Below, piece by piece: positions 57,163-62,316 of a stretch of DNA of 64,000 nt (within the stretch, counting starts at the first letter, position 1; every line of letters begins with the position of its first letter). The notes beneath the pieces are model-generated. The model did no database searches and had not been told where the DNA came from. It was given only the letters and a program-made list of their open reading frames with translations. Made by a program: the position numbers and the translations under genes. Source of the DNA: Hyphomonas sp. (lineage in GTDB: Bacteria; Pseudomonadota; Alphaproteobacteria; Caulobacterales; Hyphomonadaceae); NCBI GenBank assembly GCA_017792365.1, contig CP051229.1, positions 434,001-498,000 of the forward strand. Reading direction: 5' to 3'.

Positions 57163-58020
57163 CTAGTCAGCCGACGCATTCTCCTTCGCCAGCTGCCGCT
57201 TCACATCCTCCAGGCCCTTCCGGATGGCGACGATCTCGTTCATCAGCGCCTCGCGCTCGCCGTGAGCCTGCGCTTCGGCTTTCTCCGCAATCTCCTTCGC
57301 CTCCGCATCGTGGATCAGCTGCATCGAATTCACGATCAGCGCGATGAAGAGATTGAGCACCGCAAAGCTCGTCACGATGATGAACGGCACGAAGAACACC
57401 CACGCCCACGGATAGGTCTCCATCACCGGCCGCACGATCCCCATCGACCAGCTTTCCAGCGTCATGATCTGGAACAGCGTGTACATCGACGCGCCGATCG
57501 ACCCGAACCACTCAGGAAACCCGGCGCCGAACAGCTTCGTCGCCATCACGCCGGCGACATAGAACACCAGCACCAGCACGGCGACGATCGATCCCATGCC
57601 CGGCGCCGCCGCGAACAGCGCATCGACCACCATCCGCAGCTTCGGCACCACCGACAGAAGCCGCAGCGCCCGCAGCACCCGCAGCGCGCGCAACACCGAG
57701 AACGCGCCCGAGAACGGAATGAGCGCCACCGCCACAACGAAGAAGTCGAAGACATTCCAGCCATCCCGGAAGAAGCGCGGCCCATAGGCGACAAGCTTGA
57801 GGCCGATCTCGATCACGAAGATCGCAAGCGCCGTCCGGTCGAGCGCCACCAGCAGCGGCCCGGCCGTTTCCATCGCCAGCGGCGACGTCTCAAGCCCGAT
57901 CGTCGCCGCATTGAGTGCAATGACGAACGTGATGAAGCGCGCAAAACCCGCGCTCTCCACAAACCGCTTCAGCGCAGCTCTGCGGCCCTCCATCGCGGGT
58001 CGAACCTGCGTTTCACTCAC
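57163..58020 (-). CDS. Prokaryotic voltage-gated sodium channel (NavAb-like)
   Basis: A 285-residue six-TM channel. Helix S4 carries Arg at 111, 114, 117 and 120 (VLRALRVLRALRLL), the voltage sensor. The pore loop contains TLESWSM at 187-193, the bacterial sodium-selectivity filter, within FQIMTLESWSMGIVRPVMETYPWAWVFF, nearly the NavAb sequence. S6 ends in VLNLFIALIVNSMQLI and the C-terminal 45 residues (AEAKEIAEKAEAQAHGEREALMNEIVAIRKGLEDVKRQL) form the expected four-helix coiled coil. GTG start at 58020. Single gene; why this organism has one is not shown by the context. Confidence 0.94.
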   Translation of the reverse strand: MSETQVRPAMEGRRAALKRFVESAGFARFITFVIALNAATIGLETSPLAMETAGPLLVALDRTALAIFVIEIGLKLVAYGPRFFRDGWNVFDFFVVAVALIPFSGAFSVLRALRVLRALRLLSVVPKLRMVVDALFAAAPGMGSIVAVLVLVFYVAGVMATKLFGAGFPEWFGSIGASMYTLFQIMTLESWSMGIVRPVMETYPWAWVFFVPFIIVTSFAVLNLFIALIVNSMQLIHDAEAKEIAEKAEAQAHGEREALMNEIVAIRKGLEDVKRQLAKENASAD

Positions 58021-58372: not shown

Positions 58373-60986
58373 ATGCCGGGAGCAGGGGGCGCATGGCTAC
58401 GTCAGGCTTGGCCTTTGGTCCTGTGTTTGGGCCAAGCGGCTGTCATCGCCGCGTTGATGATTTTTGCCATGTTCCGTTCGGATCTGGAGCCGCTGATCGG
58501 CTCGGAGATACCGCAGCTATTTCAATTCAGAATTGAGACTTGGCACTGGGTGCTAGGATGGGCCTTGCTGTGGGCAAGCCTGTCGACAAGCGCTGCGATG
58601 GTTCGCGGCCCCCAGCTCGGATTCCTTGTCAGCGGCCTGTTCGCCATGCTGATCGGCGTAGGAGCTTGGGGCTTGGCGGAAGTCTCGCTGATCGAGGCTT
58701 CCGGCGTGCTGGTCGTGACTTCGATGCTGCTCGCAGTCTGGGGTGGTTGGCTGATCGTCCAGTTTGCGCGCCTCAACCTGCTCTGGCCACCAAGGTCGGA
58801 CCACGCTCAGGTCGCCGCTGGCCAGAAAACAGTTCGGCCAGACACGGAGGATCTGACCGAGCTTTTCGTCTATGTTTTTGTGGGTCTGGCGGTTCTCGCA
58901 GTGGCCGCGAGTCAACGCGTCTGGCCGGGCGCCAGTCTGGCGGATCGCGCGGCCACCGGTAACGAGCTCGCACCTTCAATCCTGTTCGCCGCGCTGGTCC
59001 TCACCACGTTTCTGCCGCTTCTCACGGGGTTCTGGCTCAAGGCGCGCCGAGACGCCGAGAAGCACGGTCGGGAGTTCTGGCGGAATGACGTCGTCACGCC
59101 GGTGTCATTCCTGATCATAATGGTCGCCATATTCGCGGTTACGACGCTCGCATATTATGCGGCGCTATACGCGTCAGACACGATCAGTTCAGCGATCAGC
59201 TACGCCACCTTCATCGGCGTGCTTTTTGTGTTCGTGTTGGTGATCGTGCTGCCTCACCTGCTGAACTTCTTTCGGCGGCGAAGCGAAGACGCGATCGCCG
59301 CTGCCGAAGGCAGGCCGATCCATACATTTGGCGTGGCCTCGCTCGATGCGCCAGCCGCCTGGCTCAGCTACCTCGACACGTTATTGGTGAAAGTCATCGC
59401 GCCGCTGTCAGGCGGGACCCAACGCCGGTTTGCGCACGTTCACGTCATCCTCATCCTCACCCTGCTAAGCCTGTTGGGCCTCGATCCCAAGACCGTTCGG
59501 TCTTGCCCCCGTCGGCCTCGGTATCCTGCTCGCCGTTTCGTTGGGGCGCCGGTGGTCTTGGGTGGAAGAGGATCGCGAAACTGCCTCACGTCTGGAGCGG
59601 ACCCGCGGCGCCAACATTCATCTGGGCTTCGAGAACGACCTGAAGGACGAAGCGCTCACCGGGTACGCTGGTCTATTCATTCTCGTACCCCTGACGCTCT
59701 ACCAGATTCAGGACATCACCGGGTTTGCGCCTGCCTTCGAAGAGCAGTCGGGCAGCGTTCTTCTGACGTGGATCGTGTTCTTCGGCGGCGAACTCGCCAA
59801 AGCGGTGCCCTTTGTCGACTGGTGGGACATCTACGGAAACGAACAGCTCTCATCGACGGGAAAGCACCTGACCTTCCTCTCCAGGGCCGCTGTCGATCTC
59901 ATCATCCTCGCCGCACTGTTTCAGGCGCTAAGCATCTGGCAGCGCAACCGGGTCCAGACCAGCTTGTTCAAGGCGGGTCACCTCGATGCCTTTGACCCTT
60001 TCAAAGAGAAGGAATTCTTCCTGCAGGGGGTCGTGCGCTTGCGCGGCAAGGCTGGCGCACCGCAGTTCGACAACCATGTCGATGCATTGCGAAAAGCGAA
60101 GAGACTGCATGTAGATCGCACCACGTCTCCCTACGCCTACTTTGAAATTCGGAAGGAGTTCGCCAGCCAGATTGAAGCGCACGTCAGGGCGCGTACTGAA
60201 CTCTTGAAGGACTCAACCGCGATCTACGAGGCGCCCGCTCCATACAGCAGGCAGCGCCTCGCGGAGCTGATCGAGCCGTCCCAACACCCTGACTTGCGGG
60301 CAGGTGCGAACTGGATGATCAGTCGCTGGAACGTCTTGGTCGGCACGCCTCGAGAGCAACTGCGGCAGATTTCCGCAAGGTGGCAAAGGATCAGATTCCC
60401 CGTGGCGGATCAGTTCCGTGCTCAAGAGGACCCCGCCCCACGCCGTATCCAGAAGATGGAGTTCGAAAAAGTTCTGGTCGAGTTGGCGGCACCGCAGTGG
60501 AGTTCGAAAGTCAGTCCAGATGACCTCAGCCACCTGATGGAATCTTTGAGAATGGTCCGCGACGAGGACGAATTCGACTTCGCGCGAATTTTGGCGTTTG
60601 AGCTGTTCGCTCAGTTGCAGATGAGTGAAGCTGTATACTTCCTGTCGAAGTTCGTACTCCGCCAGCAGGATATCGACGAAGATGAGGGTTGGCGCCAGAA
60701 AGTCATCGCTTACGCGGAGGGCCCGGATACGGCGATGCGCCTCGGCCGTGCCGAAATGCGGCAGCGCGTATACGATGCGCTCTCGAGGATCGCTCTAAAC
60801 CGGTCTGCCGAAGACAGCGCGCGCACCAATGCCTGCACTCTGCTCAAGTGGATGGGCCAGGCCGATCCCGCAACAGCTAGCGCAGCCGAATACGCGGCCA
60901 ACCTCGCTAAACTCGCCTGCGAAGCCATCGAGAACGATCTCCGCCGTGAGAGTGAGCACGGGGACGAAGAGGACGAAGCTGAATAG
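58373..60986 (+). CDS. Large polytopic membrane protein of unknown function, frame interrupted
   Basis: About 870 residues in two pieces: one extra base near 59495 separates LGLDPKT from the resumed frame FGLAPVGLGILLAVSLGRRWSW. The N-terminal 490 residues carry roughly ten to twelve TM helices in groups, with a conserved-looking turn FFGGELAKAVPFVDWWDIYG. The C-terminal 350 residues are soluble and helical with no recognisable catalytic motif. I recall membrane proteins with a KAVPFVDW-type turn among uncharacterised families but cannot name one. The start is uncertain: ATG at 58373 is chosen; TTG at 58355 (after GGAGG) is the alternative. Codon use is more mixed than the neighbouring housekeeping genes, which may mean acquisition. 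Confidence 0.7.
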
Positions 60987-61013: not shown

Positions 61014-62186
61014 CTAAACCTCGATCACCCGAACCCCATTCGGCTTGGCAGCCAGCGCCAGCTTGCCGGCTTTCAGCGCCAGCGCCTTTTCGCCGAACAC
61101 ATCGCGGCGCCATCCCGTCAGCGCGGCGATCTCCGGCGCGTCCTCGCGCGCGATGCGCTCAAGGTCGGCAGCGTTCGCGATCAGCCGCGGCGCCACGTCC
61201 TCCTCATCCGACACCTGTTTCAAAAGCACGCGCAGCAGGTCCGACAACGCCCCAGCCGGCGGGCCAGATGAAGCCGGCCGCTCCACCTGCGGCGCATACG
61301 CCTTGGGATCCGCCAGCGTCTCCTGAATCATCTCCACCAGCGACTGCCCGTGCTTCGAGCGCGAGAACCCCTTCGGCACAGCCCGCAACCGGTCCAGCGC
61401 CTCGGCGCTCGCCGGCCGCTGCTGCGCGATCTCCTGCAGCGCGTCATCTTTCAGGATGCGCCCGCGCGGCTTGTCGATGTCCTGCGCCAGCTGCTCGCGC
61501 CACGCCGCCGTGCGCGCCAGTAGGGCGAGATAGTCCGGCTTGTACTTGCGGATCTTCAGCCGCTTCCACGCCAGATCCGGATCGAAGGCATAGAGCGCCG
61601 GGTCAGTCAGCGCCGCATGCTCGTCCTCGATCCAGTGGACCCGGTCCTTCTTCTCCAGCCGGTTGCGCAGCCAGACATAGATCTCCCGCAGATAGGTCAC
61701 GTCCCCGCGCGCATAGTGCAGCTGCTTCTCCGACAAGGGTCGCCGCGTCCAGTCGGTAAACTGCGAGGACTTGTCGACCTGCTGCTTCAGGACCTTCGAG
61801 ACAATGTTCTCATAGCTGATCGAATCGCCCAGTCCGCAAGCCATCGCCGCGATCTGCGTATCGAAGATCGGGCCGGGCGGCTTGCCCAGGAGGCGCGCGA
61901 AGATCTCGATATCCTGCCGCGCCGCGTGGAACACCTTCACCCGGCTCTCATCGGCCACCAGCTCGAGGAACGGCGCAAGATCCAGCCCCGCCAGCGGGTC
62001 GATCATCACGTCGTAATCCGCCGTCGCCGCCTGTATCAGGCACAGCTGCGGCCAATACGTTGATTCCCTGTGGAATTCCGTATCCAGCGCCAGAAAGTCG
62101 CCCTTCGCCAGCTCTACACAGGCTTGCGCAAGGTCCTCACTGGTGGATATCAGCCTCAGGCGCTCGCCGCTGTCTTCCTTCGTCAC
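61014..62186 (-). CDS. rnd: Ribonuclease D
   Basis: A 3'-5' exoribonuclease of the DEDDy group that trims tRNA precursors. The 390 residues from GTG at 62186 (GGAG 6 bases upstream) have the DEDD motifs: Asp35-x-Glu37 in FLALDTEFHRESTYWPQLCLIQ, HAARQDIEI, and the tyrosine motif LHYARGDVTYLREIY. An HRDC domain follows (DIDKPRGRILKDDALQEIAQQRP). Divergent from aspS. Confidence 0.93.
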   Translation of the reverse strand: MTKEDSGERLRLISTSEDLAQACVELAKGDFLALDTEFHRESTYWPQLCLIQAATADYDVMIDPLAGLDLAPFLELVADESRVKVFHAARQDIEIFARLLGKPPGPIFDTQIAAMACGLGDSISYENIVSKVLKQQVDKSSQFTDWTRRPLSEKQLHYARGDVTYLREIYVWLRNRLEKKDRVHWIEDEHAALTDPALYAFDPDLAWKRLKIRKYKPDYLALLARTAAWREQLAQDIDKPRGRILKDDALQEIAQQRPASAEALDRLRAVPKGFSRSKHGQSLVEMIQETLADPKAYAPQVERPASSGPPAGALSDLLRVLLKQVSDEEDVAPRLIANAADLERIAREDAPEIAALTGWRRDVFGEKALALKAGKLALAAKPNGVRVIEV

Positions 62187-62221
62187 GCACGTCTCCGATC
62201 GGCCGCATCCGGGCCGTTGTA

Positions 62222-62250
62222 TTGACAATCGCGTTGGGGGCATGCGCTTG
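62222..62250 (+). promoter_or_regulatory. Candidate -35 element for aspS
   Basis: A consensus TTGACA occurs at 62222-62227, upstream of aspS. At the expected 17-base spacing the -10 position reads CGCTTG, a poor match, so this is only a partial promoter call. Confidence 0.2.
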
Positions 62251-62316
62251 TCCGCCCCAATGATCAAGCCGGACCCGCCATTTTAGGGCCCGAACCGAAC
62301 CAGGAGTCCAGTCCCG

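What the first reader, a model, noticed from the sequence alone, without database searches (positions are those of the whole stretch)
58373..60986. Large unrecognised membrane protein with a soluble helical tail next to a sodium channel
About 870 residues, ten or more TM helices, a KAVPFVDWWDIYG turn between them, and a 350-residue cytosolic tail with no enzymatic motif. It shares its upstream gap with a divergently transcribed voltage-gated sodium channel and has codon use unlike its housekeeping neighbours. This is the best candidate in the window for an undescribed function.
Basis: partly seen in the sequence, partly recalled or inferred. Interest (0 to 1): 0.6.

Follow-up and report, generated by a model that had tools for sequence, protein, structure and literature searches.

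The report
Orphan membrane protein with solenoid tail
This is a broken copy of a so far unmodelled family of bacterial membrane proteins that carry interchangeable, probably protein-binding tails inside the cell; its place beside a sodium channel gene looks accidental.

Summary
In detail: 58373-60986 encodes about 870 residues with 12 hydrophobic segments, the KAVPFVDWWDIYG motif and a 350-residue soluble tail, beside a divergent sodium channel gene. As sequenced it is split over two frames at about 59483; intact relatives exist. The window pieces match no model in Pfam, NCBIfam, PHROGs or PADLOC and no PDB sequence. They belong to a real, patchy family: 48 of 105 genomes of the same taxonomic family, 51 of 299 of the order; in class (289) and phylum (299) samples only the own genome. 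The family is modular: variable N-terminal helices, a conserved ~240-residue membrane core, and a tail that is helical, a TPR array, or HEAT plus FGE-sulfatase. Charge and hydropathy averages suggest the motif segment lies on the periplasmic side (re-entrant or interfacial) and the tail in the cytosol. The sodium channel link is not supported: in none of 39 other genomes holding both genes are they together. Composition and a nearest relative in a less related genome point to horizontal transfer. Best reading, moderate confidence: a membrane receptor or scaffold that docks partners through its solenoid. A solenoid-gated channel is not excluded.

The parts
58373..59482 (+). N part of the split gene: 370 residues, poorly conserved hydrophobic segments plus the first helix of the core
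   Evidence: 54% identical to the intact H. johnsonii homologue
59475..59500 (+). Frame break, in the tight turn between the first two core helices; a short perfect inverted repeat (59489-59504) lies just after it
   Evidence: intact homologues read through this place
59484..60986 (+). C part of the split gene: 500 residues and stop (rest of the core, then the tail)
   Evidence: 66-67% identical to the H. johnsonii homologue
59360..60047 (+). Conserved core membrane module (profile A1, 246 positions)
   Evidence: E 1e-4 and 2e-79 on the two sides of the break
59799..59837 (+). Signature KAVPFVDWWDIYG inside a 21-residue amphipathic segment, inferred periplasmic or re-entrant
59931..60983 (+). 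Soluble tail, about 350 residues, inferred cytosolic
   Evidence: no Pfam match
60336..60983 (+). Predicted helical-repeat part of the tail, by alignment to residues 679-885 of the L002 model
57163..58020 (-). Divergent neighbour: bacterial voltage-gated sodium channel type gene; adjacency seen only in this genome of 40 that hold both
61014..62267 (-). Convergent neighbour: 3'-5' exonuclease with HRDC domain (RNase D type, name recalled), used as core-gene yardstick

Best explanation
The locus is a frame-broken, probably horizontally acquired copy of an undescribed family of integral membrane proteins found, as far as sampled, in one order of Alphaproteobacteria. Shown: a conserved core of four strongly hydrophobic helices with the signature segment between the last two, preceded by a variable set of helices and followed by interchangeable tails (helical, TPR, or HEAT plus FGE-sulfatase). 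Inferred: the core sits in the inner membrane with the signature segment facing the periplasm or dipping into the membrane from that side, and the tail in the cytosol. Proposed mechanism: the protein works as a membrane receptor or scaffold; the cytosolic solenoid captures a protein partner, and the core, through its conserved charged residues, senses or responds to an event at the membrane. In this genome the copy may be non-functional, if the break is not a sequencing error.
For: Family and distribution. Core conservation, 17 invariant columns in 28 rows. Tail exchange on a conserved core: of 55 tails scanned 9 match TPR_10, 4 FGE-sulfatase, 3 HEAT_2, FGE tails at two separate places of the core tree. 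Topology: family-averaged K+R per 10 residues is 1.91 in the linker, 0.34 and 0.52 on either side of the motif, 2.24 after the last helix (61 rows); hydropathy peaks of about 2.0-2.4 for four helices but about 1.2 for the motif segment, and a like pattern in 12 TPR-clade rows (1.9-2.6 against 1.1). Tail predicted as helical repeats, 211 of 885 residues at pLDDT 70-90, all in the tail, resembling designed and natural helical repeats, Z up to 11.0, rmsd 3.3, 141 aligned. Selection: dN 0.40 and dS 1.80 in the N half; core 87% identical to the H. johnsonii copy although 56% of third positions differ.
Against: No experiment or annotated relative gives a function. The membrane part could not be modelled (pLDDT mostly under 50), so the topology rests on charge and hydropathy alone; the segment before the first core helix also reaches a hydropathy of about 1.4 and the single-sequence scan counts the motif segment, or 5 segments in the core of L057, as hydrophobic, so the helix count, and with it the side of the tail, could be off by one. 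Z of 11 is within what helical repeats reach without kinship (note), and the window tail has no repeat-family match. Neighbours show no partner gene that would name a pathway. The window copy is not one open frame, so its activity in this genome is doubtful.
Confidence: 0.5

Rival explanations
1. A solenoid-gated channel or transporter: the last two core helices with the signature segment between them form a helix / re-entrant loop / helix pore, and binding at the cytosolic solenoid opens it.
For: The motif segment lies between two K/R-poor loops and between two true helices, with a K/R-rich stretch behind, as a re-entrant loop would; invariant E, K, R, D and Q in or near helices (E of ELAK is nearly invariant); 51 of 59 complete main-clade members have 8-11 hydrophobic segments by scan.
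Against: No similarity to any channel or transporter family; no filter-like motif that I recognise; an interfacial periplasmic helix fits the same charge pattern; no model of the core.
Confidence: 0.25
2. A membrane-acting component of a conflict or phage-defence system, whose fast-changing tail senses infection.
For: Patchy presence, tail turnover, TPR/HEAT/FGE domains of the kind reported in prokaryotic conflict systems (passages of PMC7159879), integrase and transposase near the closest relative, single neighbours that match GajB, IetS, JAB and DRT-helicase models.
Against: Of 10 proteins scanned with PADLOC 8 had no match and 2 only weak ones, best E 2.9e-5 to a TPR model; no family recurs in more than 4 of 128 nearest neighbours (25 rows of each list seen, ordered by number), and the 4-member PADLOC rows may be generic helicase hits; subfamilies keep fixed chromosomal places; no match in plasmids, phages or viral contigs.
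Confidence: 0.12
3. An accessory or regulator of the adjacent sodium channel.
For: Divergent genes sharing a 352-base gap in this genome.
Against: Adjacent in 1 of 40 genomes that hold both genes; 45 of 105 genomes have the channel without the family gene and 8 have the family gene without the channel.
Confidence: 0.03
4. A decaying pseudogene in this genome, irrelevant to its present physiology (compatible with any function of the family).
For: Frame break here; other broken copies in L164 and L091 and a shortened one in L033.
Against: Both halves keep the mark of purifying selection and no second lesion was seen in the translations; the break may be a sequencing error next to an inverted repeat.
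Confidence: 0.45

Closest known systems
HEAT / ARM alpha-solenoid proteins (Pfam HEAT_2 and related)
   Same: Tail predicted as stacked helices; 3 of 55 tails of the family match HEAT_2
   Different: The window tail itself has no Pfam match; it follows a polytopic membrane core that matches no Pfam model
FGE-sulfatase (C-type lectin fold) proteins of conflict systems and diversity-generating retroelements (PMC7159879, passages read)
   Same: Four family members end in an FGE-sulfatase domain, some behind HEAT-like repeats
   Different: The window member has no such domain; 3 of 4 genomes with FGE-tailed members had no reverse transcriptase match, the fourth only on another contig
Repeat-tailed membrane proteins such as TRP channels with ankyrin repeats (recalled, not tested)
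   Same: Polytopic membrane part plus cytosolic repeat solenoid
   Different: No Ion_trans match for this protein
BacNav voltage-gated sodium channels (neighbouring gene)
   Same: Adjacent in this genome only
   Different: Different family; no conserved linkage

Membership tests
The undescribed core-module family defined here (profile A1) | Core profile with RRW.W.E..R, DL.DEAL, ELAKAVPFVDW.(D/E)IY and RA.VDL signatures | tested here: met
   E 2e-79 for the main piece, 1e-4 for the piece before the break (the window was one of the 28 rows of the profile; searches show the match independently by single-sequence search)
The undescribed core-module family defined here (profile A1) | One continuous reading frame | tested here: not met
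   two frames; 71 complete homologues are single frames of 596-1137 residues
Characterised transporter or channel families | Profile match in Pfam, NCBIfam or PDB sequences | tested here: not met
   best E 0.11 in Pfam and NCBIfam for the window pieces; no family matched more than 2 of 28 core rows
Sodium channel partner protein | Conserved gene adjacency with the channel | tested here: not met
   0 of 39 other genomes holding both
HEAT/ARM repeat protein (tail) | Repeat profile or fold match standing above unrelated helical repeats | tested here: inconclusive
   no profile match for the window tail; Z up to 11 among many helical repeats
Known anti-phage defence proteins (PADLOC) | Match to a PADLOC model | tested here: not met
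   none for the two window pieces at E 0.1
DGR target protein | Variable FGE/C-type lectin domain with a reverse transcriptase | tested here: not met
   no FGE domain in the window tail; for FGE-tailed relatives
Solenoid-gated pore | Oligomeric pore with flux | not testable with these tools
   core models failed

The most novel reading that the evidence does not exclude
A new class of prokaryotic membrane pore, confined to one alphaproteobacterial order, built on a helix / re-entrant KAVPFVDWWDIY loop / helix unit and gated by exchangeable cytosolic solenoid, TPR or FGE-lectin sensors.
Probability: 0.13. Interest if true: 0.75.

Novelty: new variant of a known kind. Interest (0 to 1): 0.36.

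Why it matters
The family is conserved, patchily widespread in one order, and missing from the protein family libraries searched, so a curated model would name a gene in 51 of the 299 genomes of that order searched. A fixed membrane core with interchangeable sensor-like tails is a testable system for how cytosolic binding is coupled to a membrane module. Showing that the sodium channel neighbour is probably incidental removes a misleading lead.

Tried and rejected
Sodium channel linkage: tested across 105 genomes and dropped. A blastp of the channel against called genes gave nothing but is weak evidence, because the longest-ORF gene caller had picked an antisense frame over the channel in the window's own region.

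Mobile element origin of the window copy: no long flanking repeats (longest direct pair 26 bases at 73%), no tRNA in the window, no plasmid, phage or viral match. The horizontal transfer argument therefore rests on composition and on relatives alone. Several other frames of the window also have GC3 of 0.62-0.77; some are plainly wrong-frame calls (the antisense frame over the channel is one), but I did not sort them all, so the composition argument is only supporting.

Wider relatives: profile A2 gave 21 weak hits (E up to 0.1, one under 0.001) in genomes other than the own. I read 3 of those loci: two are MutS and one is a frame antisense to a penicillin-binding-protein-like gene (names recalled); the other 18 were not read. 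A1 in class and phylum samples found only the own genome.

Diversity-generating retroelement: no reverse transcriptase match in 3 of 4 genomes with FGE tails; in the fourth (G566) it is on another contig.

Internal duplication of the membrane part: profile comparison of N region and core gave no similarity. In the same call tail against core scored high; at least one row's core end (L076) had been set into the tail by a second domain match, so I did not use it.

Structure of the membrane core: two AlphaFold jobs with six rows failed there. Foldseek's top PDB rows span the low-confidence part and are not used.

Programmed frameshifting: a second copy (L164) breaks in the same turn, but the 71 complete copies read through, so I do not argue for it.

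Full report
WHAT IS THERE. The window holds two overlapping frames that together make one gene: 58373-59482 (370 codons) and 59484-60983 plus stop (500 codons). Intact relatives cover both parts in one frame, so the window copy is broken in the short turn between the first two helices of the conserved core. The GC of the gene is 0.60 against 0.635 and 0.651 for these neighbours.

NO KNOWN FAMILY. Neither piece matches Pfam or NCBIfam (best E 0.11), PADLOC at E 0.1, PHROGs at E 0.01 or PDB sequences (best E of the profile and piece searches 0.33). Scanning each of 28 core sequences against Pfam gave no family in more than 2 members, best E 0.0087. Three searches of the held papers gave nothing on it: (motif letters) found 0 papers; the listings (2 and 6 papers) showed nothing relevant by title. 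One of those papers, PMC7159879, was read only in passages. Papers outside that library were not searched.

A REAL FAMILY. Searching the C part in 105 genomes of the same taxonomic family gave matches in 48, including the own genome (one of these, G127, is a weak tail-only hit in a frame with a stop). With a core profile (A1, 28 rows) 51 of 299 genomes of the order match, in 11 of 54 genera. In evenly drawn samples of the class (289 genomes) and phylum (299) only the own genome matched. Plasmid, phage and viral-contig searches found nothing. So the family is patchy and, as far as sampled, confined to one order. The four named records among the matches are Hyphomonas, an alphaproteobacterium of the Hyphomonadaceae.

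ANATOMY. The conserved unit is a core of about 240 residues (window 59360-60047) with invariant R, W, W, E, R after the second core helix, D and E before the third, the ELAKAVP-VDW-(D/E)IY segment, and R, D, Q in the last helix. In front stand a variable number of hydrophobic segments: by the scan mostly 4-7 in the main clade (extremes 2 and 9), and 1-2 in the TPR-type clade, without detectable similarity to the core. Behind stands a tail that changes: of 55 tails scanned (54 of the 71 that one search listed, plus the window's), 9 match TPR_10, 4 FGE-sulfatase and 3 HEAT_2, while the window's tail matches nothing. FGE tails sit at two separate places of the core tree (L081 with L165, L157 with L159), so tails have probably been gained or lost more than once. 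The tree used 74 rows; the window's own region, L033, L091, L092, L164 and L172 (broken or partial) were left out and the window entered as two pieces with X between.

TOPOLOGY. Averaged over 61 main-clade rows (broken, partial and 12 TPR-clade rows left out), four core helices peak at hydropathy 2.0-2.4 while the motif segment reaches about 1.2 and the segment before the first core helix about 1.4 (every third position was printed). K+R per 10 residues is 1.91 in the linker between the second and third helix, 0.34 and 0.52 in the loops on either side of the motif segment, and 2.24 after the last helix. The 12 TPR-clade rows show a like hydropathy pattern. By the positive-inside rule (established knowledge) the linker and the tail are cytosolic and both loops around the motif periplasmic, so the motif segment would not cross the membrane: it is a periplasmic interfacial or a re-entrant segment. 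This is inference; the membrane part could not be modelled (pLDDT mostly under 50), and a helix count off by one would turn the tail to the other side.

TAIL FOLD. In the model of the intact H. johnsonii homologue (six-row alignment) the part from about residue 555 on is the only well predicted one: 211 residues at pLDDT 70-90, with dips to about 46-58; it is helical apart from a few short strands. VIA-align gives Z up to 11.0 with designed helical repeats, ATR and exportins over residues 679-885, window 60336-60983. The tool itself warns that helical repeats reach such values without kinship, so 'alpha-solenoid of HEAT/ARM type' is a likely description, not a membership.

THE SODIUM CHANNEL. 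The neighbour is a bacterial sodium channel type gene by profile and PDB matches. Channel homologues occur in 85 of 105 genomes and family members in 48 of 105; 40 hold both, including the window's own. Comparing the two lists by eye, none of the other 39 has them together: 31 have them on different contigs and 8 on the same contig, the nearest about 115 kb apart in G021. The adjacency is therefore most likely accidental.

ORIGIN OF THIS COPY. The core tree joins the window to the H. johnsonii copy L057 with full support, inside a clade of genomes of the genera labelled g4 and g6, g6 being that of H. johnsonii. The core part of the C half is 87% identical to that copy, the tail and the N half about 54%. 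G006 and G007 (the latter 82% complete) hold no family member at the threshold used, and G015 and G022 only distant ones of about 40%. With the deviating composition this favours horizontal acquisition. The H. johnsonii copy has a phage-type integrase about 1.2 kb away and a transposase within 5 kb. Beside the window copy the genes identified are the channel, an AraC-type regulator, a DUF2306 protein and the exonuclease, and no long flanking repeats were found. Several subfamilies elsewhere keep stable places beside genes such as uvrB, nadA, an M20 peptidase or a phosphate transporter, so many copies look like resident genes.

STATE OF THIS COPY. The N half shows purifying selection (dN 0.40, dS 1.80); in the C half dS is saturated but amino acids are far better kept than third positions. 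The break is thus recent or a sequencing error; I cannot decide. Other broken or shortened copies exist: L164 in the same turn, L091 near the motif, L033 shortened.

HOW IT MOST LIKELY WORKS. A conserved membrane module with exchangeable cytosolic binding tails fits a receptor or scaffold that couples binding in the cytosol to an event at the membrane (0.5). The same anatomy would fit a pore whose gate is the tail (0.25) or a membrane component of a conflict system (0.12). Which of these holds cannot be settled from sequence. Neighbour genes show no recurrent partner: among 128 nearest called frames (ten near-duplicate loci and the regions L034 and L172 left out) no Pfam or PADLOC family occurs in more than 4; the gene caller is crude and only the first 25 rows of each list, ordered by number, were shown.

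Noticed in passing
L164:7781-9843 (G538): A second family copy is broken in the same turn between the first two core helices as the window copy; with few broken copies seen this may be coincidence, sequencing error or a fragile site.
   Followed up: partly
L081:8257-10899, L165:561-3263, L157:7917-10694, L159:7934-10765: Family members whose tail ends in an FGE-sulfatase domain, at two separate places of the core tree; no reverse transcriptase match in three of the four genomes, so hardly ordinary DGR targets.
   Followed up: partly
L061, L064, L065, L066, L075, L076 and L032, L087, L088: Genes of one sequence cluster (uvrB by Pfam in the two members scanned) neighbour family genes of two distant subclades in different orientation, as if the uvrB side were a landing site or one paralogue replaced another.
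   Followed up: no
neighbour set: Four family genes lie beside a GMP synthase gene (guaA), which by recall is a known insertion site of genomic islands.
   Followed up: no
window 59489-59504: A perfect short inverted repeat (7-base arms, 2-base loop, read by eye) lies directly after the frame break and might favour sequencing or replication errors.
   Followed up: no
L089, L090, L094, L095, L167-L171, L173-L175: A divergent clade carries the same core behind only one or two helices and long, mostly TPR-matching tails; L094 and L095 end in a further shared stretch without a Pfam match.
   Followed up: partly
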